Origin: Microbispora corallina
GTDB lineage: Bacteria; Actinomycetota; Actinomycetes; Streptosporangiales; Streptosporangiaceae
DNA length: 64,000 nt
Direction: 5' to 3'
Assembly (NCBI RefSeq): GCF_016863035.1
Contig: NZ_BOOC01000030.1
Span: forward strand, 1 to 64,000
The notes beneath the pieces were generated by a model. That model saw nothing but the letters and a program-made list of their open reading frames with translations, ran no database searches and had not been told where the DNA came from. Positions 4,770 through 33,506 of this stretch are shown in pieces (position 1 is the stretch's first letter; each line of letters starts with the position of its first letter). Both the position numbers and the translations under genes were made by a program.

Positions 4770-5201
4770 CTAGTCGGCGATGGTGATGCCCATGGAGCGG
4801 GCGGTGCCGGCGATGATCTTCTCGGCGGCGGCGATGTCGTTGGCGTTGAGGTCCTGCATCTTCGTCTCGGCGATCTGCCGCAGCTGGTCGCGGGTGAGCT
4901 TGCCCACCTTGTCCTTGTGCGGGTTCGCGCTGCCCTTCTGCAGACCGGCGGCCTTCTTGATCAGCTCGGGCGCCGGCGGCGTCTTCGTGACGAAGGTGAA
5001 GCTGCGGTCCTCGAAGATGGTGATCTCGACGGGGATGATGTTGCCCCGCTGGGACTCCGTCGCCGCGTTGTACTGCTTGACGAAGTCCATGATGTTGACG
5101 CCGTGCGGACCGAGGGCGGTACCGACCGGCGGCGCGGGCGTGGCCTGACCAGCGGGAAGCTGGACCTTGACCAGCGCCGCGATCTTCTTCTTTGGAGGCA
5201 T
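4770..5201 (-). CDS. rplK: 50S ribosomal protein L11
   Basis: 143 aa. N-terminal [29 protein letters not shown] is the signature region that contacts 23S rRNA of the GTPase-associated centre. C-terminal [12 protein letters not shown] is the rRNA-binding helix. The ATG is preceded by GGAGAAAAACAG. Lies between nusG and rplA in the conserved secE-nusG-rplK-rplA order. L11 is also the stringent-response sensor partner of RelA and a thiopeptide target. Confidence 0.98.
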
Positions 5202-19787: not shown

Positions 19788-20933
19788 TCAGAGACGTTCG
19801 ATGATCGTGACGTTGGCCTGGCCGCCGCCCTCGCACATCGTCTGCAGGCCGTACCGGCCGCCGGTGCGCTCCAGCTCGTGCAGCAGTTTGGTCATCAGGA
19901 TCGCGCCGGTGCCGCCGAGCGGGTGGCCGAGGGCGATGGCGCCGCCGTTCGGGTTGGTGCGCTCCGGGTCCGCGCCGATCTCCTTGAGCCAGGCCAGCGG
20001 GACCGGGGCGAACGCCTCGTTGATCTCGACGACGTCGATCTGGTCGATGCTCAGGCCGGCCCTCTTCAGCGCCTTCTGGGTCGCCGGGATGGGCGCGGTC
20101 AGCATGTAGACCGGGTCGTCCCCGACCAGCGACAGCGTGACGATCCGGGCGCGCGGGGTCAGGTTGTGCTCCCGCACCGCCTGCTCGGAGGCGATGAGCA
20201 CGGCGCCCGAGCCGTCCGAGATCTGCGACGAGGTGGCGGCGGTGATCCGGCCGCCCTCCCGGAGGGTCTTCAGCTCGGCCATCTTCTCGAGCGTGGTGTC
20301 GGGACGGGGGCCCTCGTCGTCCTCCACGCCGTTGATCGGCGCGATCTGCTCCTTGAAGTGACCGTTCGCGATGGCCTTGGCCGCCCGCTGGTGGCTCTCG
20401 TAGGCGTACCGGTCCAGCTCCTCGCGGCTGAAGCCCCACTTCTCGCACATCAGCTCGGCGCCGCGGAACTGGGAGATCTCCTGCTTGCCGTACCGCTCCA
20501 CCCACTTGTCGCCGAACGGGAACGGCATTCCCTTCTCCAGGGCCGCCGTGATGCTCGACCCCATGGGCACGATCGACATCGACTCGACGCCGGCCGCGAC
20601 GACCAGGTCCTGCGTGCCGGACAGCACCCCCTGGGCCGCGAAGTGCACGGCCTGCTGCGAGGAGCCGCACTGGCGGTCGATCGTGACGCCCGGGACCGTC
20701 TCCGGCAGGCCCGCGCTCAGCCACGCGTTCCGGGCGATGTCCATCGACTGCGGGCCGAACTGCATGACACAGCCCATGATCACGTCGTCCACCGCGGCCG
20801 GGTCGACGCCGGTGCGCTCGACGAGCGCGGCTAGGGTGTGAGCGGCAAGGTCGGTCGGATGGACCGTGGACAGCCCGCCCTTCTTCTTGCCGACCGGGGT
20901 CCGGACCGCCCCGACGATGTACGCCTCTGCCAC
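19788..20933 (-). CDS. Acetyl-CoA acetyltransferase (thiolase)
   Basis: 381 aa. Nucleophile Cys89 in TIDRQCGSSQQA, then NEAFAPVPLAW, GGAIALGHPLGGTGA (His) and the C-terminal MCEGGGQANV (second Cys). The complete thiolase triad is therefore present. The extended loop with KWVERYGKQEISQFRGAEL is typical of long-chain FadA-type thiolases rather than PhaA. GTG start at 20933 with GGAGG close upstream. A palindrome at 20950-20966 may bind a fatty-acid regulator. No fadB partner is adjacent; two acyl-CoA dehydrogenases and a crotonase lie elsewhere in the window. Confidence 0.93.
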   Translation of the reverse strand: MAEAYIVGAVRTPVGKKKGGLSTVHPTDLAAHTLAALVERTGVDPAAVDDVIMGCVMQFGPQSMDIARNAWLSAGLPETVPGVTIDRQCGSSQQAVHFAAQGVLSGTQDLVVAAGVESMSIVPMGSSITAALEKGMPFPFGDKWVERYGKQEISQFRGAELMCEKWGFSREELDRYAYESHQRAAKAIANGHFKEQIAPINGVEDDEGPRPDTTLEKMAELKTLREGGRITAATSSQISDGSGAVLIASEQAVREHNLTPRARIVTLSLVGDDPVYMLTAPIPATQKALKRAGLSIDQIDVVEINEAFAPVPLAWLKEIGADPERTNPNGGAIALGHPLGGTGAILMTKLLHELERTGGRYGLQTMCEGGGQANVTIIERL

Positions 20934-20949
20934 AGTGCCTCCATAGGAA

Positions 20950-20966
20950 ACCGAGCAATGTTCGGT
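20950..20966. promoter_or_regulatory. Palindrome in the thiolase 5' region
   Basis: ACCGAGCAATGTTCGGT: 5-bp perfect arms (ACCGA/TCGGT) with partly symmetric centre, overlapping a TTGACC -35-like box on the minus strand. It resembles TetR-type fatty-acid operators of actinobacteria (ACCGAxC...GxTCGGT style). By-eye call. Confidence 0.4.
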
Positions 20967-21017
20967 CAATGAGAGGTTACATCAGAACTTTCGTCTGTGG
21001 ACGGTCCGGGTGGGGCC

Positions 21018-22248: not shown

Positions 22249-23157
22249 CTAGGATTTGGCCTTGGCGAGATGCGTGCTCGTCATCGTCGCGTACACGATG
22301 ACGTTGTCCACATAATGGCCGGTCGTACGGTTGTAGGCACCCCCGCAGGTGATGAGCCGCAACTCCGCGTTGGCCGCCTGCCCGTAGACGCGGTTGGTCG
22401 GGAAGGTCTGCTTGTTCGCCTGCTCGACGCCGCCCACCATGAACACGGCGACCGTGCCGTCCATGCGGGTCACCTCGATCTCGTCGCCGTACCGCAGCTC
22501 GTGCAGGCGGCTGAAGACGGCGCTGCGGGTGGTGGTGTCCTTGTGACCGAGCATGACGGCGGGCCCGGCCTCGCCCGGGGTGGGTCCGCCGCGGTACCAG
22601 CCGACGAGGTTGGCGTTGTTGATCGGCGGCGTCTCGATCGCCCCGGCCTTATCGGTGCCGACCGAGACGATCGGCGCGTTGATCCCGAGCTTGCGGATGA
22701 TGAGCCGCTTCGGCGAGGACGGCTGCATGGCCGGCGCCGCGGGAGCCGGCGGCGCCGGCGGGGGCGCCATGGGCACGGCCTGGGTGAGCGCCTGCCCCGG
22801 GCCGCCCGGCCCGACGCTGGGCGCGAGGCCGCCCTGCCCCTTGGCCAGGTTGAGGCCCGTCCGCTCGGGCGGGGCGTACTCGTCGGGTGAGCTGACCATG
22901 AAGACGGCACCGAGGACGACGGTCACCAGACCGACCACGGCCGCCAGGATGAGCACGCCGCGGATCGCCTGCGTGCCGCCGCCCCTCGGCTCCTCGGGCT
23001 CCTGCGGCGGCGGCTGGACCTGGGGCAGCATGACCGGCTGGTAGACCGGTGGGCCCCACACCGGCTGGGGATGCCCGTGCAGGCGGGGGTCGTAGGGCAC
23101 GCCGTACGGCGGCTGCCCGGGCTGACCCGGCGGGTACTGTCCAGGCGGCGTCGTCAC
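22249..23157 (-). CDS. Class F sortase (first)
   Basis: 302 aa. Cytoplasmic Pro/Gly/Tyr-rich N-terminus (about 1-60, with GQYPPGQPGQPPYGVPY), a transmembrane helix (about 65-87), a linker, then the sortase barrel: catalytic His in VMLGHKDTTTR, Cys271 in LRLITCGG, Arg277 in YNRTTGHY. The class F pattern of PSIGV/NNANLVGWYRGG is visible. It should cleave a sorting signal and join the protein to the cell wall. It starts 9 bases after the secreted protein gene at 23167-24051, which I infer is its substrate. Confidence 0.92.
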   Translation of the reverse strand: MTTPPGQYPPGQPGQPPYGVPYDPRLHGHPQPVWGPPVYQPVMLPQVQPPPQEPEEPRGGGTQAIRGVLILAAVVGLVTVVLGAVFMVSSPDEYAPPERTGLNLAKGQGGLAPSVGPGGPGQALTQAVPMAPPPAPPAPAAPAMQPSSPKRLIIRKLGINAPIVSVGTDKAGAIETPPINNANLVGWYRGGPTPGEAGPAVMLGHKDTTTRSAVFSRLHELRYGDEIEVTRMDGTVAVFMVGGVEQANKQTFPTNRVYGQAANAELRLITCGGAYNRTTGHYVDNVIVYATMTSTHLAKAKS

Positions 23158-23166
23158 GACCCCGTC

Positions 23167-24051
23167 CTACTGCCGCACGGGCCGCCGGCGGGCCCGCATC
23201 ATGAGTCCGCCCGTGGCCGCGGCGAGCATCAGGCCGGTGCCGGTGAGGACGAGGACCCGCCCGTCCGGGCCCGCCTCGCCGCCGCCGCCCGTCGCGGCGC
23301 CGCCGCCGGGCGTGTGGGTGACCTGCCCCGAGCGCCGCGACTTGGACGGGCTCGCGGTGACGGTCTCGTACACCGTCCGGGTGTGCCGCGGAGTGGGGCT
23401 CGTCGAGGTGCTGGGCGAGGTGCTCGCTGACGGCGTCGAGGACGCGGTCCCGACGGCGACCGTCGCGACCGCCGGCAGCGTGGACACCCCGGTCGTCGAG
23501 ATCTTGCAGTCGTAGAGCAGCTCGGGCGTCGTGGAGCCGCTCGTGGCCGAGCCGAGCAGGTTCAGCTTGAAGTCCCTCGCCGTGAGGACGACCGACGTCG
23601 CGCCCGTGGACGGCGTGACCGTGATCGTCGCCACTGGGAGGGCCCCCATGGGCGAGCCGACGGGCGCTGAACTGAGCGAGGCGGAGGGGGACGGCGTGGA
23701 CACCCCTGCGGCGCCCGAGGCCGAAATCGACGGCTCGACCTGGATCCACTTGTCCGTCCCGATGGCCACGGGCGCGGGCAGCGCGGAGGCCCCGGACGAC
23801 AGCGTCAGCGTCGCGGTGAAGGCGGTGCCGACCGCGGCGCTCCCGTTCGCGGTCAACGACACCGTGAAGTCGTGCGTGACGGCGGCACCCGAGGACGGGG
23901 TGCACGTGTAACTGACCGTCTTGGTGTCGGCGTGCGCGTTGACGACCGCCAGACCGCCGAGGAGGACGCCCGCGCTGACCACTCCGGCCCCGGCGGCCCT
24001 CCGGACGACTCGGCCGCGTGCCCTGGACTTCAGCACTGACTTCTCTCCCAT
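23167..24051 (-). CDS. Secreted surface protein with non-canonical sorting tail (C)
   Basis: 294 aa from ATG 24051. Signal peptide ending NAHA-D. N-terminal module with VSYTC and a matching LLYDC near its end, probably one disulphide. A Ser/Thr/Pro stalk with TSPSTSTSPTP follows. The tail has GGGAATGGGGEAGPDGR, a hydrophobic helix and RARRRPVRQ, the order of a sortase signal but without LPXTG. It is the upstream gene of a sortase (9-base gap). Closely parallels the proteins at 24202-25503 and 27289-28719. Confidence 0.82.
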   Translation of the reverse strand: MGEKSVLKSRARGRVVRRAAGAGVVSAGVLLGGLAVVNAHADTKTVSYTCTPSSGAAVTHDFTVSLTANGSAAVGTAFTATLTLSSGASALPAPVAIGTDKWIQVEPSISASGAAGVSTPSPSASLSSAPVGSPMGALPVATITVTPSTGATSVVLTARDFKLNLLGSATSGSTTPELLYDCKISTTGVSTLPAVATVAVGTASSTPSASTSPSTSTSPTPRHTRTVYETVTASPSKSRRSGQVTHTPGGGAATGGGGEAGPDGRVLVLTGTGLMLAAATGGLMMRARRRPVRQ

Positions 24052-24201
24052 CCCGGATCCCCGTAGTAACAGGCGTACCAGCATTCCAGCATACGGTCAC
24101 GGTCAGGTAGCGATCCTACGGACAAAGCCCCCCTAATGGCCTCTCTCTGCCGGGAATCCGTCAGGGAACGGCCAAGAAACGCCGCCCCCGGCGTACGGGT
24201 C

Positions 24202-25503
24202 CTAGACATGGCGCACGCCTCGTGCCGACGTCCGCGAGCCGGATCTGCGCAGCACGAGGCCGCCGGTCGCGGAGGCGGCCATCAGGACGGCGCCGGCGAG
24301 CACGAAGACCCGTCCGTCGGGGCCGATCTCGCCGCCGCCACCTGTCTGCGCGCCGCCCAGCGGAGTGCGGGAGATCTGGGCCGTCGCCCGGTGGGTGACG
24401 GTCGCGGTCGACGACACGGTCGAGGTGACCGTCGTGGTCGCCGACGCCGTGGTGGTCTCCGTGACCGTCTCGGTCGGGGCGGGAGAGTCGTCGGCGCCGT
24501 CGGTGCCGTCGTCGCTCGGCGTGGCGCTCGGGCTCGTGGCGGGGGACGACACGATCGTGAGGGCGACCGAGGCCCGCGAGCCGGACTCGGGAGCGGTGCA
24601 GGTGTAGAGGTCGTGGGTGGTCGTCCCGCTCTGCGGCGCGAGTTCCAGCCCGAAGTCGCCGGCCACCACGCCCACCGTCCCCACGGCGGTCGGGGTAAGG
24701 GTGATCACCATGTCGGGGATGGGCGCCAGCGTGGCCGTGGCCGGCACGGCGGTGCTGACGGTCGCCGAGGCGACGGGCGTCACGGTGACCGCCGGCACGG
24801 CGGCCGAGAACGGGTCGCCGGTCGTGTCCGTCGCCTCCGGGCTCGGGGAGCCGGTGCCCGCGTCGCCCGGCGAGGACGCGGCGTCCGTAGGCGTTCCGGA
24901 GTCGGTGGGCGTTCCGGAGTCGGTCGGAGACGAGGTGGCGTCGGCCGCGGTGTCCGAGAACTCGGAGCCGGCGCCGTCGCCCGACGGCGTGGTGCCGCTG
25001 CCGGAGGGGCTCGGGCTAGGGGAACTGGGAGACGGAGACGCGCCGCCGGCGGACGGGCTCGCGCTGCTTGACGGGGACGGGCTCCCGCTACTTGACGGCG
25101 TCGGGCTGCCGCTGCTCGACGGCGTCGGGCTCGCGCCGCCCGCGACCGGGGCTCCGGTGGCCTCGGCGGTCCCCTCGGCCACGATCACGTCGCCACTCGC
25201 GAGGCTCGTCCCCGCGACCATCGGCGACTGCCCGGCGCCGGGGCTGCCGGGCGTGATCCTCCAGGTGATCCGCGCGGTCTGCCCGGGCGTCACGCCGTCG
25301 GGGGCCTGGAGGGCGACGGTGACGGGGTACGTCGCCGTGGCCGTGCCGCCGAGGGCGGTGCAGGAGTAGAGGACGGTGGCGGAGCCGTCCTGCGCGAGCA
25401 CCGGCCAGGCCATCAGCGCGATCGCACCCGCGCCCGCCGCCGCGGCCGCTCGCATGGCGATGCGCCGCCGCGCACTTCTGTGCCGGACGCTCACGTTGGG
25501 CAC
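24202..25503 (-). CDS. Secreted surface protein with non-canonical sorting tail (B)
   Basis: 433 aa from GTG 25503 (GGGAGA about 8 bases upstream). Signal peptide ending VLAQ-D, then the LYSC module (CTALGG, later DLYTC). The middle is a long low-complexity Ser/Pro/Thr/Gly region with short repeats (SPTPSSSGSPTPSSSGS; TDSGTPTDSGTPTD) that also shows as tandem DNA repeats near 24889-24930 and 25064-25135. The tail is TPLGGAQTGGGGEIGPDG, a hydrophobic helix and RRSGSR. No sortase directly follows, but protein C and its sortase are next on the strand. Divergent from 25640-26371. Confidence 0.82.
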   Translation of the reverse strand: MPNVSVRHRSARRRIAMRAAAAAGAGAIALMAWPVLAQDGSATVLYSCTALGGTATATYPVTVALQAPDGVTPGQTARITWRITPGSPGAGQSPMVAGTSLASGDVIVAEGTAEATGAPVAGGASPTPSSSGSPTPSSSGSPSPSSSASPSAGGASPSPSSPSPSPSGSGTTPSGDGAGSEFSDTAADATSSPTDSGTPTDSGTPTDAASSPGDAGTGSPSPEATDTTGDPFSAAVPAVTVTPVASATVSTAVPATATLAPIPDMVITLTPTAVGTVGVVAGDFGLELAPQSGTTTHDLYTCTAPESGSRASVALTIVSSPATSPSATPSDDGTDGADDSPAPTETVTETTTASATTTVTSTVSSTATVTHRATAQISRTPLGGAQTGGGGEIGPDGRVFVLAGAVLMAASATGGLVLRRSGSRTSARGVRHV

Positions 25504-25639
25504 AGCTGTCTCTCCCACCACCGCGGTCACGATCAAGCGGGCCCAGTCTTCCAGGCTTTGACCGCGGGCATCACCAAAAGCGGACTTATGTCAGGAAACA
25601 CTCAGGGAACCTTCACGGCATTCCCGGTGTATCGGGTGC

Positions 25640-26371
25640 ATGAGACGACTACTCGTGGCGCTCGCCGCCGTGGCGGCGATCCTGGCATGGGCGCCCCCCG
25701 CGTACGCGGGGAACTGGGCGGTGACCGAACTCGACCCGCTCCCCTCCCGGATGGAGCCCGGAGTGGCCTACACGGTCGGCTACTGGGTCCTCCAGCACGG
25801 CACCCACCCGTTCGACGGCACGGCCGCGGAGCTCGGCACCACCGGGCTTCGCATCGTCGGGGAGAACGACAAGGGGGTCACGTTCGCCGGCACGCGACTG
25901 CCGGAGCCGGCCCACTACGCCGTTACGATCATCCTGCCGCCGGGCGTCTGGCGGTTGCAGGGCGTCCAGGGCGTCTTCGGGACGTGCGAGCTCGGCCTGC
26001 TCACCGTGCCGGGCGGACTGCGGCCGGTCCCGCCGGAGTTCCCCGCCGCGCCCGGCGGGGAGGTCAAGGACTACTGGGGCGACGCGAAGCCGCCCGGCTT
26101 CCCGTGGTCGTCGACCCCGGTCGCGGCCGCACCCGCGACACCCGCGGCCACGACGGCCGCACCCGTGCCAGCCACACCCGCGCCGGCCACGTCGGCGAAG
26201 GCCTCCTCGGCGTCCGGCGGCGTGCCGTACCCGCTGGCCGCCGTCCTCGTCCTGGCGGCGGGCGCGGCGGCGCTGCTCACCCGCAGGGGAGCCGGCCGGC
26301 GGGCGGAAGACGACGCCGCTGAGCCGGACGGCCCGGCTCAGGACGTGATCACAATCGGCCGGGGAAGCTGA
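25640..26371 (+). CDS. Secreted/membrane-anchored protein with GNWAVTELDPLP domain
   Basis: 243 aa. Signal peptide MRRLLVALAAVAAILAW... cleaved after AYA-GNW. The domain of about 125 residues (GNWAVTELDPLPSRMEPG, YTVGYWVLQHGTHPF, PEPAHYAVTIILPPGVW) is a conserved beta-sandwich found in many actinobacterial membrane proteins, of unknown function. An Ala/Pro/Thr linker, one transmembrane helix (about 195-213), and an acidic cytoplasmic tail follow. Probably shown on the outside by a type I topology. It ends 15 bases from the convergent sortase gene. The tail lacks the GGA-x-TG motif of its neighbours. Confidence 0.8.
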   Translation: MRRLLVALAAVAAILAWAPPAYAGNWAVTELDPLPSRMEPGVAYTVGYWVLQHGTHPFDGTAAELGTTGLRIVGENDKGVTFAGTRLPEPAHYAVTIILPPGVWRLQGVQGVFGTCELGLLTVPGGLRPVPPEFPAAPGGEVKDYWGDAKPPGFPWSSTPVAAAPATPAATTAAPVPATPAPATSAKASSASGGVPYPLAAVLVLAAGAAALLTRRGAGRRAEDDAAEPDGPAQDVITIGRGS

Positions 26372-26386
26372 CCCCGACCGGGGACG

Positions 26387-27277
26387 TCACTTGCCCTGCA
26401 CGCCGGTCAGCGTCGCGTACACGATGATGTTGTCGGTGTAGCTGTGCCGCTTGGCGTTGAAGACGCCGCCGCAGGTGACCAGCCGGAGCGAGGCCGTGAT
26501 CGTGTTGCCGTAGACCCGCTTGGTGGGGAACGTCGTCTTCCCCACCTGCTCCACGCCGTCGACCGTGAAGATCGCGATCTTCCCGTCGGCGCGCAGCACC
26601 GAGATCTTGTTGCCCCGCTTCAGCTCGTGCAGGCGGCTGAAGACGGCCGCGCCCGTACGGGTGTTCACGTGGCCCAGGATGATCGCCGGTCCTTGGTCGC
26701 CGGGGGCCGGGCCGAGGCGGTACCAGCCGGTGAGGCTCGGCCGGCTCAGCGGAGGCGCCTGGATCTCGCCGGACTTCTGCACGCCGACGGCCCCGACCTT
26801 CGCCTTGACCCCGATGGACGGGATGCTGATCTTGACGGGCCGGCTGGACGTCTTCAGGGCCGTGGCCGTCTTCGACGACGAGGACGAGGACGTCGGGACG
26901 TTCACCGGCAGCGACGAGGACGAGGCGGTGGTCGTCGTCAGCGACAGCGGCGCGAACGGCTGGAGCGCGGGCGCCGGCGGCGGGGCCGTCGGGTCGGCCG
27001 CCGTCAGCGGCACCCCCGGGCCTCCCGGGCCGACGGTCGGCGGCAGGAACGCGACGTTCCCCGCGTCCTGGACGGTCGTCTGGTACCCGGGCACCTCCTC
27101 CGTCCCGGAGGAGGGCGCGAGGACGGCCAGCATGCCGGCCATCACGGCCACGATGCCGCCGAACGACCCGGCCACGAGCAGCGTCGCGAGGACGGGCTGC
27201 GGGAGCGACCGGCGCTTCGCGGGCGTGGCGGGCTGCTGAGGCTGGGGAGCCTGGCCCTCGGGAGGAGTGGCGGTCAT
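26387..27277 (-). CDS. Class F sortase (second)
   Basis: 296 aa. Short cytoplasmic segment, transmembrane helix (about 28-52), a Ser/Thr-rich linker, then the barrel with IPSIGVKAKV, IILGHVNTRTG (His), Cys269 in LRLVTCGG and Arg277 in FNAKRHSYTDN. The linker contains a run of six Ser residues. It starts 11 bases after the secreted-protein gene at 27289-28719, mirroring the other substrate-sortase pair. The two sortases are clear paralogues (VGPGGPG, GGVEQ.NK/GKTTFPT.RVYG). Confidence 0.92.
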   Translation of the reverse strand: MTATPPEGQAPQPQQPATPAKRRSLPQPVLATLLVAGSFGGIVAVMAGMLAVLAPSSGTEEVPGYQTTVQDAGNVAFLPPTVGPGGPGVPLTAADPTAPPPAPALQPFAPLSLTTTTASSSSLPVNVPTSSSSSSKTATALKTSSRPVKISIPSIGVKAKVGAVGVQKSGEIQAPPLSRPSLTGWYRLGPAPGDQGPAIILGHVNTRTGAAVFSRLHELKRGNKISVLRADGKIAIFTVDGVEQVGKTTFPTKRVYGNTITASLRLVTCGGVFNAKRHSYTDNIIVYATLTGVQGK

Positions 27278-27288
27278 CGTGATCCTCC

Positions 27289-28719
27289 TCAGACCGTGAG
27301 GTTCCGGTCGCCCGAGTGGGCCGCCCTGCGCCTGAGCAGGGCCACCCCGCTGAACACGCCTATCACCAGCATCACGCCGCCCGACCCGACGAGCAGCGGG
27401 CCGGACGCGGAGGTGCGGACCGGCTCCTCACCGGTCTGCGCCCCGCCCTTGGGGGTGACCCGCACCTGCGCCACGGTCGGCGTGGCGGTCAGCGTGACGG
27501 TCGTGGTGGCCGTCGGCGTCGGGCTTCCCTGCACCACCACCGCGACGACCTGGCTCTGCGACTGCGACGGAGTCGAGCTCGGCGACGCGGAGGCCGAGCC
27601 GCTCGGGCTGGGCGAACCGGACGGAGGAGGCGTGGAGCCACTGGGGTCGGGCGAACCGCTGGGAGAGCCCGAGGAGGACGGGGTCGTGGGCGGGGTCGTC
27701 CCGCCGCCGCCGCCGTCGCCGCCGCCACCGCCGATCGTCACCCGGACGGCCGTCGGCTTCTTGGTCGGCGTGCACACCGCCTGGAGCTGCTTCGGCGGGG
27801 TCATGATCTGCTCGGTGACGACGCGGAAGCCGTCCACCATGGCCCACTTGGCGTCCAGCTTCTTCACCGTGAGCGTGTGCTGCTTGTACGGCAGGCCGCG
27901 CATGCCCCACAGCGTGTGGTTGCCCTGGTTGGCGACCACCACCGGGTTCCCGTTCTCGTCCTTCGAGGCGTCGGCCGTGGCCGGGATGCCCGGCTTGCCG
28001 TCGATCGCGAACTGCACCTGCCCGGCGCGGTAGTCCTGCTCGGTGATGAAGTCGACGCCCGTGCCGGTGAAGGGGAAGGAGACCTCCGCGCCGGTGACCT
28101 CGCTCGCGTGGACGTCCTCGTGGATGTCCTTGAACTGCGGCGCGCGGTCGTTGTAGTCGGCCCAGTCCGAGCCGACGTACGCGATCGAGGGGTCGTCGTC
28201 GTTGACGACCGTCTCGGACGCCGGTGGGGTGAAGTCGATGAACAGCTTCTTGGGCACCAGTTCCAGCGTCCCGGCCTGGGTCGTGGACACCGCGCCGGAG
28301 ATCAGCTCCGGCAGCTCGATCGGCCCGCCGTTCTGGAGCAGCGCCTGGTCCTTGTATCCGAGGGAGTTGAGCTCCCCGTTCCACAGGTCGCCGCTGATTC
28401 CGGAGACGCCGGTCGCGGACAGGCGGGCGCCGGGCTGGAACAGGCCGGGCGACAGGAACCGCGTGCCGTCCCGGTAGGCGACGCCCCACCGGACGTCGAG
28501 CGGCTGGCCCACGGCCAGGGCGGTCTGCAGCGTGAGCGTGACCTTGAGGTTGACCGGCGTGGGCGCCACGCCCTGGGGGCCGGAGACACACGTGTAGTTG
28601 AGGTCGATCTCGACCGCCTCGGCCCTGGCCGAGGTCAGGGGCAGCGCGAGGAGCACCCCTCCGGCCACGCTCACGACCGCGGCGGCGAGCGTGCGCCGCC
28701 CCGCTCTCCACCGAACCAC
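27289..28719 (-). CDS. Large secreted surface protein with sorting tail (A)
   Basis: 476 aa. Signal peptide ending SARA-EA. N-terminal module with DLNYTC and a later LQAVCTP. The middle is a jelly-roll-like domain (about 190-300) with VSFPFTGTGVDFITEQDYRA, VQFAIDGKPG, HTLWGMRGLPYKQHTL and KWAMVDGFRVV, the style of carbohydrate-binding galactose-binding-fold modules. Gly-rich and Ser/Pro stalk (PPTTPSSSGSPSGSPDPSG). The tail is TPKGGAQTGEEPVRTSASG, a hydrophobic helix and RRRAAHSGDRNL. First gene of a pair with the second sortase. Confidence 0.85.
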   Translation of the reverse strand: MVRWRAGRRTLAAAVVSVAGGVLLALPLTSARAEAVEIDLNYTCVSGPQGVAPTPVNLKVTLTLQTALAVGQPLDVRWGVAYRDGTRFLSPGLFQPGARLSATGVSGISGDLWNGELNSLGYKDQALLQNGGPIELPELISGAVSTTQAGTLELVPKKLFIDFTPPASETVVNDDDPSIAYVGSDWADYNDRAPQFKDIHEDVHASEVTGAEVSFPFTGTGVDFITEQDYRAGQVQFAIDGKPGIPATADASKDENGNPVVVANQGNHTLWGMRGLPYKQHTLTVKKLDAKWAMVDGFRVVTEQIMTPPKQLQAVCTPTKKPTAVRVTIGGGGGDGGGGGTTPPTTPSSSGSPSGSPDPSGSTPPPSGSPSPSGSASASPSSTPSQSQSQVVAVVVQGSPTPTATTTVTLTATPTVAQVRVTPKGGAQTGEEPVRTSASGPLLVGSGGVMLVIGVFSGVALLRRRAAHSGDRNLTV

Positions 28720-28939: not shown

Positions 28940-30085
28940 ATGCGGCGAGACCTCTTCGACGAGGAGCACGACCTCTTCCGCGAGACCGTCCGCGAGTTCA
29001 TGGCTCGCGAGGTGGTCCCGCACCACGCGCAGTGGGAGCAGGACGGCATCGTCCCGAGAGAGGTGTGGAAGAAGGCCGGCGAGCTCGGCATGTTCGGCTT
29101 CTCGATCCCCGAGGAGTACGGCGGGTCGGGCATCACCGACTTCCGCTACAACACGGTGATCGTCGAGGAGATCATCCGCCACGGCGCGACCGGCCTCGGC
29201 TTCGGCCTGCACAACGACATCATGGCGCCGTACCTCGTCGACATGACCGACGACGAGCAGAAGCAGCGCTGGCTGCCCGGGTTCGCCTCCGGTGAGCTGA
29301 TCACGGCCATCGGCATGACCGAGCCGGGCGCGGGCAGCGACCTGCAGGGGGTGCGGACGACCGCCGTCCGCGAGGGCGACCACTACGTCGTCAACGGGCA
29401 GAAGACGTTCATCACGAACGGCATCAACTCCGACCTCGTCGTCGTGGTGACCAAGACCGATCCCACGGCCGGGGCGCGGGGCACGACCCTGCTGGTCGTC
29501 GAGCGCGGCATGGAGGGGTTCACCCGCGGCCGCAATCTCGAGAAGGTCGGCATGCACGCCCAGGACACGGCCGAGTTGTTCTTCGAGAACGTCCGGGTAC
29601 CGGTGGCCAACCGCCTCGGCGGCGAGGAGGGCCAGGGCTTCATCCAGCTCATGGTCAACCTGCCCCAGGAGCGGCTGTCGATCGCCGTCGCGGCCGTCGC
29701 CGCCGCCGAGACCGTGCTGGAGCAGACGATCGAGTACTGCAGGAGCCGCAAGGCCTTCGGCAGGAACATCGGGCAGTTCCAGAACACCCGCTTCCTGCTG
29801 GCCGAGCTGTCGACCGAGGTGGAGATCGCCCGCCACTACGTCGACAAGTGCATCCTCGCGCTGAACGCCAAGGAGCTGACGGTCGTGGACGCGGCCAAGG
29901 CCAAGTGGTGGACGACCGAGCTGCAGAACAAGGTCATCGACCGGTGCCTCCAGCTTCACGGCGGCTACGGCTACATGCTGGAGTACCCGGTCGCCAAGGC
30001 ATGGCTCGACAGCCGCGTCCAGACGATCTACGGCGGCACGACCGAGATCATGAAGGAGATCATCGGCCGCTCGTTCGGCTTCTGA
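28940..30085 (+). CDS. Long-chain-type acyl-CoA dehydrogenase
   Basis: 381 aa. Signatures: SIPEEYGGSGITDF, IGMTEPGAGSDLQGVRT, QKTFITNGINSD, and the tail QTIYGGTTEIMKEIIGR. At the place where medium-chain enzymes have the catalytic Glu (YEGT), this protein has Gly (YGGT), as in LCAD. The base is then expected from the Glu of NLPQERLSIA, the LCAD/IVD position. GGAAGGCG precedes the ATG. Divergent from the surface-protein gene; a possible regulator site at 28887-28899. Confidence 0.92.
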   Translation: MRRDLFDEEHDLFRETVREFMAREVVPHHAQWEQDGIVPREVWKKAGELGMFGFSIPEEYGGSGITDFRYNTVIVEEIIRHGATGLGFGLHNDIMAPYLVDMTDDEQKQRWLPGFASGELITAIGMTEPGAGSDLQGVRTTAVREGDHYVVNGQKTFITNGINSDLVVVVTKTDPTAGARGTTLLVVERGMEGFTRGRNLEKVGMHAQDTAELFFENVRVPVANRLGGEEGQGFIQLMVNLPQERLSIAVAAVAAAETVLEQTIEYCRSRKAFGRNIGQFQNTRFLLAELSTEVEIARHYVDKCILALNAKELTVVDAAKAKWWTTELQNKVIDRCLQLHGGYGYMLEYPVAKAWLDSRVQTIYGGTTEIMKEIIGRSFGF

Positions 30086-31277: not shown

Positions 31278-33506
31278 TCAGCGGCCGCCGATGGGGATCT
31301 CGAACCAGACGGCCTTGCCCTCGCGCGTCGGCCGCGAGCCCCAGCGCCGGGCCAGCTGGTCGACCAGGTAGAGGCCGCGGCCGCCCTCGTCGTTCTCGCC
31401 GGCGCTGCGGATGCGGGGCAGCCGCAGGTCCTGGTCGAAGACCTCGACCCAGATGGACTCCCCGCCGCGGCGCAGCCGGAGCATGAACTCCTTGTCTCCG
31501 GCGATCTCCTCTTCGAACCCCGGCACGTCCCACGACTCGTCGAACGGCAGCGGCGGGCCGTCGAAGACCAGCTCCCGCCGGGGGACGCTGGCGCTCGCCG
31601 CGTGCAGGACCACGTTGGTCACGACCTCGGAGACCAGCAGGCAGGCCAGCTCGGCGCGCTCCTCGGGGACCCGCCATGCCGCGAACGCCTCCGCCGCCAT
31701 GCGGCGCGCCTCGCTCACCATGATCGGCTGCGCCGGGAACGTGCGCTCCTCGACCTCCAGCTCGCTGCCGGCGGACCTGACCACGAGGATCGCCATGTCG
31801 TCGTCGATCTCGCCCGGGACGGCGACGGTCGCCATGTCGGCGATCCGCTCGACGGGCTCGTTGGAGACCTTGGCGAGCTTCTCGAACAGCACCCCGAGCG
31901 TCTCGTCGTCGCTGGGCGGGGCGCCCTCGGCGTCGCGCGGCGGCCGCCGGTCGACCAGGCCGTCGGTGTAGAGGAGCAGCGTCGCGCCGGGCGGCAGCGT
32001 CCGCGTCTCCTCCTTGTAGACCAGGTCGGCGTGGACGCCCTTGGCGCGCACCCCGAGCGGCTGGCCGACCTCGGTGATGTCGAGCTCCGTCACGTTGCCG
32101 TCGACGATCAGCAGCGGCGGGGCGTGACCGGCGTTGGCGAACGACAGCTGGCGCGACCACGCGTCGTACACCATGTACTGGCAGGTGACGATCGGCGGAT
32201 TGGTGATGTCGGCGCCGAAGTCGTCGTGTTCCGGCGCGGCGACGATCCTGGTCCACTCGTCCAGGCGGGCGAGGATGTCGGCGGGTGGCTTGTCGTCCTG
32301 GGCGAAGGCCCGCAACGCGGCCCTGAGCTGGCCCATGACCGCCGCCGCCTTGGCCCCGCGGCCCTCGACGTCCCCGATCACGATGCCGACGCGGCCGGCC
32401 GACAGCGGGATCACGTCGTACCAGTCGCCGCCGACCTGGGTCTGGATGCCCTGCCCGTGGGAGGCGAGCGGGGCGGCCGGGTAGTAGCGGACGGCGATCT
32501 CCAGGCCGTCGAGCGAGGGCAGCGGCTGACGCGGGAGCAGGTTCTTCTGGAACGACTCGGCCGTGTGGCGCTCCTCCTCGAAGAGCAGCGCGTTGTCGAC
32601 GGCGAGCGCTACCCGGGTTGCGATGGCGCCCACGAAGTCGCGGTCGAAGGTGTCGTAGTGGGGCGAGCGCCGGTCGGTCAGGTTGGACATGCCGAGATAC
32701 ATCAGCCCGAGCGTCTCCCCGCGCACGCACAGCGGCGCGACGATCGCCGAGGTCATCCCGATCTCCCCGCACACGCGGGCCGCGCCCTCGCTCGGGGCGG
32801 GGTAGCTGACCTGCGAGAAGTCCTCGACGAGGATCGTCTCCTGGCGGCGGATGGCAATGTCGGCGTAGTGGCCGGGCGGGTACCGGATCTCGCCGCCCAC
32901 CGGCTGCCAGCTGTCCGGTGGCGGCGTCCAGCCGTGGACGTGCGTCGACACCTTGCGGATCAGCCGGTCGCCCTCGACGAGCTCGATGAAGCAGTGGTCG
33001 GCGAACTGGGGGACCAGCATCTCGGCGACGCGGTTGAGGGTCTCCTCGACGTACAGCGAGCCGGCGAGCCGCTCGCCGATGCGCTCCAGCAGGCCGAAGC
33101 GGTCCTTCTCGCGCTCGTTGCTGCGCATCGCCTCGCGCGCGGTGATCACGATGCCGGTGACGGAGCCGGACGGGTGGCGCAGCGGGACGGCCTGGGCGCG
33201 CACGTAGATCATCGTGCCGTCGCCGCGGACCACGTCGAAGGTGCCCTCCCACACCCCGCCCCGCAGCACGTGCTTGGCGAGGTCGACGGCGAGAGGGTGG
33301 TCCTTCTCCATGATCCCCAGCGAGAGCAGGGACTCCTTGCCGGTGGGGGCGCCGACCCGGCCGAACAGCTGCTCGGCGAACGGGTTCCAGTAGAGGACGT
33401 TGCTGAAGCGGTCGGTGACGACCACGGCCATCTCGGCGTGATCGAGGACGGAGCCGGCGGTGAGGTGGTCGTCGGTGTCCTGTGACAGGTCTCCCCAGCG
33501 TCTCAT
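31278..33506 (-). CDS. PAS-GAF-SpoIIE (PP2C) phosphatase with anti-sigma kinase-like domain
   Basis: 742 aa with four domains. PAS at about 15-115 (AEMAVVVTDRFSNVLYWNPFAEQLFG), GAF at about 140-315, SpoIIE/PP2C at about 335-560 (QVGGDWYDVIPLSAGRVGIVIGDVEG; LLLYTDGLVDRR; DDDMAILVV) and a C-terminal GHKL ATPase at about 590-742 (LACLLVSEVVTNVVLHA; GGRGLYLVDQLA). This is the actinobacterial fused phosphatase/kinase used to switch STAS antagonists. A STAS protein with Ser is at 40635-40979, a possible client. The sensed signal is unknown; stand-alone gene. Confidence 0.93.
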   Translation of the reverse strand: MRRWGDLSQDTDDHLTAGSVLDHAEMAVVVTDRFSNVLYWNPFAEQLFGRVGAPTGKESLLSLGIMEKDHPLAVDLAKHVLRGGVWEGTFDVVRGDGTMIYVRAQAVPLRHPSGSVTGIVITAREAMRSNEREKDRFGLLERIGERLAGSLYVEETLNRVAEMLVPQFADHCFIELVEGDRLIRKVSTHVHGWTPPPDSWQPVGGEIRYPPGHYADIAIRRQETILVEDFSQVSYPAPSEGAARVCGEIGMTSAIVAPLCVRGETLGLMYLGMSNLTDRRSPHYDTFDRDFVGAIATRVALAVDNALLFEEERHTAESFQKNLLPRQPLPSLDGLEIAVRYYPAAPLASHGQGIQTQVGGDWYDVIPLSAGRVGIVIGDVEGRGAKAAAVMGQLRAALRAFAQDDKPPADILARLDEWTRIVAAPEHDDFGADITNPPIVTCQYMVYDAWSRQLSFANAGHAPPLLIVDGNVTELDITEVGQPLGVRAKGVHADLVYKEETRTLPPGATLLLYTDGLVDRRPPRDAEGAPPSDDETLGVLFEKLAKVSNEPVERIADMATVAVPGEIDDDMAILVVRSAGSELEVEERTFPAQPIMVSEARRMAAEAFAAWRVPEERAELACLLVSEVVTNVVLHAASASVPRRELVFDGPPLPFDESWDVPGFEEEIAGDKEFMLRLRRGGESIWVEVFDQDLRLPRIRSAGENDEGGRGLYLVDQLARRWGSRPTREGKAVWFEIPIGGR

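What the first reader, a model, noticed from the sequence alone, without database searches (positions are those of the whole stretch)
22249..28719. Two-sortase, three-substrate cell-surface locus with a GGA-x-TG sorting motif
Seen: two class F sortases, each 9-11 bases after a secreted protein, plus a third secreted protein; all three end in GGA(A/Q)TG, hydrophobic helix and Arg tail. Known: sortases normally read LPXTG. Inference: a self-contained surface-display module using a variant signal, with alternating substrate and sortase genes. This is my leading candidate for an undescribed system.
Basis: partly seen in the sequence, partly recalled or inferred. Interest (0 to 1): 0.75.

Follow-up and report, generated by a model that had tools for sequence, protein, structure and literature searches.

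The report
Sortases with a glycine-rich sorting tag
A soil actinomycete carries two wall-anchoring enzymes (class F sortases), each next to its own surface protein bearing an unusual glycine-rich tag in place of the textbook LPXTG, and the same kind of tag sits beside many class F sortases across the phylum, suggesting what these little-understood enzymes act on.

Summary
On the minus strand: protein A, sortase SrtF1 (11 bases later), protein B, protein C, sortase SrtF2 (9 bases later). Both sortases are class F; A, B and C end in TPxGGA(A/Q)TG, a hydrophobic stretch and Arg. The genome is a Microbispora. The A-SrtF1 / C-SrtF2 pairing occurs in 14 of 15 genus loci examined (the 15th is a short contig) and in 23 of 27 two-sortase loci fetched from the family.

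The motif generalises. With a pattern fixed before the test, P-x-[GADE]-x-[AVPIMST]-x-[TAS]-G, 28 of 37 anchored proteins directly upstream of class F sortases in other families match (shuffles: mean 2.0, maximum 6). NCBI already holds a related model, GVDTG_CTERM: 16 of its 17 best hits in the family were fetched, and all 16 lie directly upstream of a class F sortase. The window's proteins score below its cut-off. The active-site Arg-to-Asn change is already published.

Best explanation: dedicated class F sortases cut T|G and anchor these proteins covalently. Cleavage and wall linkage are inferred, not shown. Another class F clade in Microbispora has no such neighbour. Class F function is still called unknown in print, and this makes it testable. 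A new variant of a known kind.

The parts
27289..28719 (-). Substrate A: signal peptide, two confident beta domains (residues about 34-330; the second carbohydrate-binding-module-like), disordered Ser/Thr/Pro-rich stalk, sorting signal, hydrophobic helix, Arg tail
   Evidence: ORF; AlphaFold2 model with most of 34-330 at pLDDT over 90, helix 447-466; Foldseek to CBM35/CBM6/CE2; weak Pfam CE2_N in 10 of 27 relatives
27430..27453 (-). Sorting signal of A, P-K-G-G-A-Q-T-G (residues 423-430); predicted cut between T429 and G430
   Evidence: positions; P423, G425, T429, G430 invariant in 27 aligned proteins
26387..27277 (-). SrtF1, class F sortase with N-terminal hydrophobic segment and Pro-rich linker; His203, Cys269, Asn283
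   Evidence: NF033748 199.5 bits, cut-off 166; residues
25640..26371 (+). Divergent secreted protein with C-terminal hydrophobic stretch but no TG motif; a similar gene is seen in several Microbispora loci; not evidently a substrate
   Evidence: Pfam only DUF2567 below its cut-off
24202..25536 (-). Substrate B (longest ORF; the true start is probably further in)
   Evidence: B-type signal in 14 of 15 Microbispora genomes
24340..24363 (-). Sorting signal of B, P-L-G-G-A-Q-T-G (residues 392-399)
   Evidence: positions; P392, G394, A396, Q397, T398, G399 invariant in 8 aligned proteins
23167..24084 (-). Substrate C (longest ORF; the true start is probably further in)
   Evidence: C-type signal in 15 of 15 Microbispora genomes
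23287..23310 (-). Sorting signal of C, P-G-G-G-A-A-T-G (residues 259-266)
   Evidence: positions; P259, T265, G266 invariant and G261, G262 nearly so in 32 aligned proteins
22249..23157 (-). SrtF2, class F sortase; His205, Cys271 and Asn285 (in the usual Arg place by spacing)
   Evidence: NF033748 207.3 bits; catalytic-domain model pLDDT 93.3; conservation; residues

Best explanation
A two-enzyme, three-substrate surface-display locus. A, B and C are exported by N-terminal signal peptides and held by their C-terminal hydrophobic helix and Arg tail. A membrane-bound class F sortase (SrtF1 for A, SrtF2 for C and probably B and the unlinked protein D) reads P-x-G-G-A-x-T-G, cuts between Thr and Gly through its Cys, and passes the Thr carboxyl to an amino group of the wall precursor, so the folded head stands off on a Ser/Thr/Pro-rich stalk. 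Leu at P4 is replaced by Gly, while P3 is mostly Ala, Val or Pro. Specificity is probably carried by Pro at P7 and Gly at P5/P4, plus residues after the cut (E-x-P for A; G-G-G-x-x-G-P-D-x-R for B and C). Shown: genes, order, conservation, predicted sortase fold, pairing of sortase clade with substrate type. Inferred: cleavage site, covalent wall linkage, which enzyme takes B and D, and polysaccharide binding by A.
For: Class F assignment and predicted sortase fold, pLDDT 93.3, best PDB match E 2.7e-10. A beside one sortase and C beside the other in 14 of 15 genus loci and 23 of 27 fetched family two-sortase loci. In the genus the signal profiles find almost only these proteins. Among 120 family genomes 48 have the C-type signal at E <= 1e-6, and none of these is among the 19 without a class F sortase (57 first-look candidates scored per genome). 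Strict motif 25 of 65 upstream against 1 of 122 elsewhere. Hold-out in 14 other families with a pattern fixed beforehand: 28 of 37, shuffles mean 2.0 and maximum 6; LPXTG-like 2 of 37, shuffles mean 4.9 (note, test). Positions that the pattern left free are also biased: P4 Gly in 59 of 81 and P3' Gly in 63 of 81 distinct strings. All 25 labelled C-type sortases lie in one 33-row group with SH-aLRT 100; the A-type label needs 3 changes on the tree.
Against: No biochemistry. The class F enzyme of Cutibacterium acnes is reported to read LPXTG (PMC13257024, passage). The usual catalytic Arg is Asn in 223 of 225 aligned class F sortases, so activity cannot be taken for granted. Deleting all four class F sortases of Actinoplanes missouriensis gave no phenotype under the conditions used (PMC13251363). 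One Microbispora clade of class F sortases (8 loci, L049-L056) has no adjacent anchored protein with the motif. 9 of 37 hold-out proteins lack the fixed pattern (by eye six are near misses and two are probably spurious ORFs); 3 of 40 hold-out sortases and 13 of 103 in the named set have no detected anchored neighbour. Third-sortase loci carry a different tail, AGGGGTAAGG. Counts are not phylogenetically independent.
Confidence: 0.8

Rival explanations
1. A, B and C are ordinary tail-anchored membrane proteins. The Gly-rich stretch is a flexible juxtamembrane spacer and adjacency to sortases is incidental or regulatory.
For: Gly-rich stretches are common in high-GC actinomycetes (general knowledge); the plus-strand gene 25640-26371 has the same topology without the motif.
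Against: A pattern with fixed spacing from Pro to T-G matches 28 of 37 hold-out proteins and rarely their shuffles; P, T and G are invariant in A and C; in Microbispora the signal profiles find almost only these families; 16 of 16 fetched GVDTG hits precede a class F sortase.
Confidence: 0.08
2. The two sortases build a mixed polymer or pilus-like fibre: one links subunits, the other anchors the base.
For: Two sortases with two or three substrates in one conserved locus, each sortase clade keeping its own substrate type.
Against: Both sortases score as class F and far below the class C cut-off. Pilin features (lysine motif, isopeptide domains) were not tested. Part of A resembles a carbohydrate-binding module.
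Confidence: 0.1
3. The class E sortase of the genome processes these proteins and the class F enzymes do something else, or are weak because of the Arg-to-Asn change.
For: The genome encodes one sortase that is not class F and resembles class E; class F lacks the usual Arg.
Against: Class E is reported to read LAXTG, with Leu at P4 (PMC5148588, passages), absent here; physical pairing with class F; His and Cys conserved in 224 of 225 and 226 of 226 class F sortases.
Confidence: 0.07

Closest known systems
NCBIfam NF058571, GVDTG sorting domain (GVDTG_CTERM)
   Same: C-terminal P-x-G-G-V-x-T-G signal, hydrophobic stretch, basic tail; I fetched 16 of its 17 best hits in 120 family genomes and all 16 lie directly upstream of a class F sortase
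   Different: The window's B and C score 14.6 and 14.2 bits against a cut-off of 29, and A is not listed; Ala replaces Val at P3; two-sortase locus. I could not read NCBI's notes on the model.
Class F sortases (NF033748), first studied in Cutibacterium acnes
   Same: Both window sortases exceed the class cut-off; His and Cys conserved; Asn in the Arg place, as reported for Actinobacteria (PMC6998099, passage)
   Different: The C. acnes enzyme is reported to read LPXTG (PMC13257024, passage); the signal here has no Leu-Pro
Class E sortases with LAXTG substrates (Streptomyces SrtE1/E2)
   Same: Actinobacterial sortase whose signal has Ala at P3
   Different: Leu at P4, catalytic Arg, different class; class E score here 21.6 and 26.3 bits against a cut-off of 160
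Actinoplanes missouriensis srtF1/srtF4 neighbours AMIS_11010 and AMIS_36440 (PMC13251363)
   Same: Secreted proteins with C-terminal hydrophobic region and basic tail beside class F sortases, suggested as possible substrates (passages)
   Different: No recognition motif was identified there; their sequences were not examined here

Membership tests
Class F sortase | Score over the curated NF033748 cut-off (166 bits) | tested here: met
   199.5 and 207.3 bits
Class F sortase | Sortase fold | tested here: met
   Predicted model of the SrtF2 catalytic domain, pLDDT 93.3; Foldseek top match A. oris SrtA E 2.7e-10, TM 0.69 by query length. SrtF1 was not modelled.
Class F sortase | Catalytic His and Cys, Asn replacing Arg (actinobacterial class F) | tested here: met
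   H205, C271, N285 in SrtF2 and H203, C269, N283 in SrtF1; conserved in the census of 226 sortases; Asn reported in PMC6998099
Class F sortase | Transpeptidase activity | not testable with these tools
   needs purified enzyme
Cell-wall sorting signal (motif, hydrophobic stretch, basic tail) | Tripartite C-terminus on an exported protein | tested here: met
   signal peptides judged by hydropathy only, no dedicated predictor was run
LPXTG / Gram_pos_anchor (PF00746) | LPXTG-type pentapeptide and Pfam match | tested here: not met
   No LPXTG; PF00746 in 1 of 32 C-type proteins at E 0.034 and not among the families matched by 27 A-type proteins at E 0.05
GVDTG_CTERM (NF058571) | Score over the curated cut-off (29 bits) | tested here: not met
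   B 14.6, C 14.2, A not listed; 20 of 32 C-type relatives match at E <= 0.05, best 1.4e-6
GVDTG_CTERM (NF058571) | Next to a class F sortase (found here, not NCBI's definition) | tested here: met
   16 of 16 fetched hits, out of the 17 best, and the window's A and C
Sortase-assembled pilus | Class C sortase and pilin motifs | tested here: inconclusive
   Class C scores 13.7 and 12.2 bits, cut-off 160; pilin lysine motifs and isopeptide domains not tested

The most novel reading that the evidence does not exclude
Many actinomycete class F sortases form a phylum-wide sorting system with its own code, P-x-G-G-[AV]-x-[TA]-|-G-x-G. Recognition moves upstream from the Leu-Pro pair to a Pro at P7 and a Gly pair at P5/P4, served by a His-Cys-Asn active site. 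Their substrates were missed because searches used LPXTG-type motifs. Paired sortases in Streptosporangiaceae divide two substrate types by the residues after the cut.
Probability: 0.5. Interest if true: 0.8.

Novelty: new variant of a known kind. Interest (0 to 1): 0.62.

Why it matters
Class F is a sortase class whose role is still called unknown (PMC6998099; PMC13251363), and these two studies listed candidate substrates with PF00746 and with LPXTG-type motifs, both of which miss proteins like these. A signal with fixed spacing, present beside class F sortases in many actinomycete families, gives a direct list of candidate substrates and a peptide to test. If it is cleaved, it adds a sorting code without the Leu-Pro pair, catalysed without the usual Arg, of interest to actinomycete cell biology and possibly as an orthogonal ligation tool.

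Tried and rejected
LPXTG substrates hidden next to these sortases: rejected (0 of 65 upstream anchored genes; 2 of 37 in the hold-out, below the shuffle mean of 4.9).

Arg-to-Asn as a new finding: dropped after PMC6998099 (passages) reported it for actinobacterial class F.

A solved class F structure for comparison: no close relative in the PDB by sequence (best 4d70, E 1.1e-5). 5uus matched the genome's class E-like sortase far better (1.1e-28) than the class F profile (0.25). hhalign of class F against that sortase stopped before the last strand, so it did not settle the Arg position; the Asn assignment rests on spacing and the published report.

My first relaxed pattern (55 of 65 against 9 of 122) was made after seeing data and is descriptive only; several of the 9 elsewhere hits are extra substrate-like proteins near sortases. 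The pattern was fixed in a note first, but after the named set had been seen; its 88 of 90 in that named set is therefore not a test. The 65 and the 90 differ because the gene-calling filters differ.

Substrate identity: Pfam gave only weak CE2_N (10 of 27) and one weak DUF6801 match for A-type; for B and C nothing over a cut-off. Foldseek's top rows for A are poor overall fits (for example TM 0.17, rmsd 21.9 for the first), including distant beta-sandwich matches to insecticidal Cry proteins; I kept only the carbohydrate-binding-module likeness of the second domain.

Searches of a PMC open-licence library. One search (GVDTG with sortase) found 0 papers. The others gave listings; I saw titles, starts of abstracts, and passages of six papers (PMC13251363, PMC5148588, PMC13257024, PMC6998099, PMC10924467, PMC4255298), and in what I saw no class F signal of this kind is named. 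I made no literal search for GGAxTG. Subscription papers were not seen: Di Girolamo 2019 is not held, and Malik and Kim 2019 I know only from citations in the passages.
Full report
What is there. The window lies in an 8.36 Mb genome that I place in Microbispora: several contigs of genomes of the same genus have the same lengths as named Microbispora records. On the minus strand, 28719 to 22249, run A, SrtF1, (a plus-strand gene), B, C and SrtF2. The gaps A-SrtF1 and C-SrtF2 are 11 and 9 bases. Both sortases exceed the class F cut-off. The genome has four sortases in all: three class F, and a fourth that scores below the class F cut-off and resembles class E.

The signal. A, B and C share TPxGGA(A/Q)TG before the hydrophobic stretch. 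In 32 aligned C-type proteins the P, T and G of the motif are invariant; in 27 A-type proteins the P, first G, T and G are invariant; in 8 B-type proteins P, first G, A, Q, T and G are. What follows the cut differs: mostly TGEAPE-like in A, TGGGGxxGPDxR in B and C.

Nearly confined to these proteins. The B/C signal profile gave 37 strong hits in 15 Microbispora genomes: C in 15, B in 14, and 8 unlinked loci of a fourth protein D in 6 genomes, the window's own included. The next hits are at E 0.045 (150 of 195-361 first-look candidates scored per genome). The A profile found A in 14 of 15, with weaker hits to B, C and D and one to the neighbour of another class F sortase (G008). D has the same tail and, in relatives, a long N-terminal domain. 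In the window's own genome the N-terminal half of D is not in the same frame, from a frameshift or an assembly error, which I left as it stands.

Conserved pairing. A beside one sortase and C beside the other: 14 of 15 genus loci (the 15th is a 3.8 kb contig with C only) and 23 of 27 two-sortase loci fetched from the GTDB family; in the other four only one partner was called, and for two of these the other partner is visible. Of 120 family genomes, 101 have a class F sortase and 48 the C-type signal, none of these among the 19 without class F (57 candidates scored per genome). On a tree of 127 class F domains all 25 labelled C-type sortases fall in one supported group of 33, and the A-type label needs 3 changes. 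The other 8 rows of that group are 6 labelled 'other' and 2 without a neighbour; the six are probably the Nonomuraea proteins with TGAGG..GPDGR that my label missed.

General motif. 79 named loci hold 103 class F sortases, 90 with an anchored protein directly upstream, in Streptosporangiaceae, Streptomyces, Kitasatospora, Micromonospora, Actinomadura, Cryobacterium and others. The strict GGAxTG of the finding is in 25 of 65 upstream anchored genes and 1 of 122 elsewhere. I then fixed a wider pattern in a note and tested 40 class F sortases from 14 other families of the phylum (list, over the cut-off, one or two per genome; stretches). Of 37 with an anchored neighbour, 28 match, against a mean of 2.0 and maximum of 6 in 1000 shuffles; LPXTG-like strings occur in 2, shuffle mean 4.9. 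The other control named in that note, anchored ORFs not upstream of a sortase, was not run with this pattern. Positions left free by the pattern are strongly Gly (P4 59 of 81, P3' 63 of 81 distinct strings from both sets). Variants and exceptions: T-A or A-G instead of T-G, AGGGGTAAGG beside the third sortase in 15 of 15 genus loci, and no adjacent motif protein at 8 loci (L049-L056) of another class F clade in Microbispora.

Relation to NCBI's GVDTG model. NF058571 is present over its cut-off in 44 of 120 family genomes and at E <= 0.001 in 86, one of which (G077, a partial weak match) has no class F sortase. I fetched the regions of 16 of its 17 best hits, and all 16 lie directly upstream of a class F sortase, with tails such as PxGGVDTGxGG. 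The window's proteins fall under the model's cut-off, 20 of 32 C-type relatives match at E <= 0.05, and nine of ten diverse named proteins match at E <= 0.1, one of them over the cut-off. So this signal is a relative of a curated domain. I found no paper that describes it, within the searches listed under Tried and rejected.

Enzyme. The SrtF2 catalytic domain is modelled as a sortase (pLDDT 93.3; Foldseek). In 226 class F sortases His is kept in 224 of 225, Cys in 226 of 226, and the place that holds Arg in other classes is Asn in 223 of 225 (the rows include near-copies). This replacement is already reported (PMC6998099, passages).

Substrates. A's model (mean pLDDT 73.5) has two confident beta domains (34-330), a disordered stalk and a terminal helix. 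The second domain resembles CBM35, CBM6 and the CE2 N-terminal domain (CBM35 TM 0.70 by target length, E 2.5e-3; Pfam CE2_N weakly in 10 of 27). Polysaccharide binding is a guess from fold alone. B, C and D have no Pfam family over a cut-off.

State of knowledge. Class F is said to read LPXTG in C. acnes (PMC13257024, passage) and to have no known role (PMC13251363, PMC6998099, passages). Deleting all four class F sortases of A. missouriensis had no visible effect, and two proteins beside them were set aside because no pentapeptide motif was found, though suggested as possible substrates (PMC13251363, passages). The signal described here could explain why such proteins were missed. It was not checked in those two proteins.

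Limits. All evidence is comparative. Counts include related genomes; the genome searches score only part of their candidates; gene calls in high-GC DNA are approximate and starts of B and C are uncertain. Cleavage, wall linkage and enzyme-substrate assignment remain to be shown.

Noticed in passing
L118 (own genome G000:C29) around 4970-5115: A fourth, unlinked protein with the same GGAxTG-type tail; in the window's own genome its N-terminal half is not in the same frame (frameshift or assembly error), while some relatives have long open copies.
   Followed up: partly
L058-L072 (15 Microbispora genomes), e.g. L061:5074-6284: The third class F sortase has its own upstream protein ending APHAGGGGTAAGG, T-A instead of T-G; similar AGGGGTA tails occur upstream of class F sortases in Streptomyces loci L197 and L204. 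Possibly a second class F signal type.
   Followed up: partly
L049-L056: A further class F clade in Microbispora, with high scores to the class model, has no adjacent anchored protein with the motif; its substrates are unknown.
   Followed up: no
window 25640-26371 (+): Secreted protein with a C-terminal hydrophobic stretch and no TG motif, on the opposite strand between the two substrate-sortase halves; a similar gene is seen in several Microbispora loci.
   Followed up: partly
window 22249-23157 and 26387-27277: Both sortases share a P(S/T)VGPGGPG stretch in the linker before the catalytic domain.
   Followed up: no
L073:6202-6843: A protein ending LPFTG near the genome's class E-like sortase, a classic-looking signal in the same cell.
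   Followed up: no
window 31278-33506 (-): PAS-GAF-SpoIIE phosphatase-HATPase protein, a likely regulator, near the locus.
   Followed up: no
L177 and L178: The loci labelled Kibdelosporangium aridum and Rhodococcus rhodnii carry nearly the same class F substrate and sortase arrangement; one record may be mislabelled.
   Followed up: no
window 19788-20969 and 28940-30085: The locus is flanked by a thiolase and an acyl-CoA dehydrogenase; neighbours of similar length recur beside the locus in relatives.
   Followed up: no
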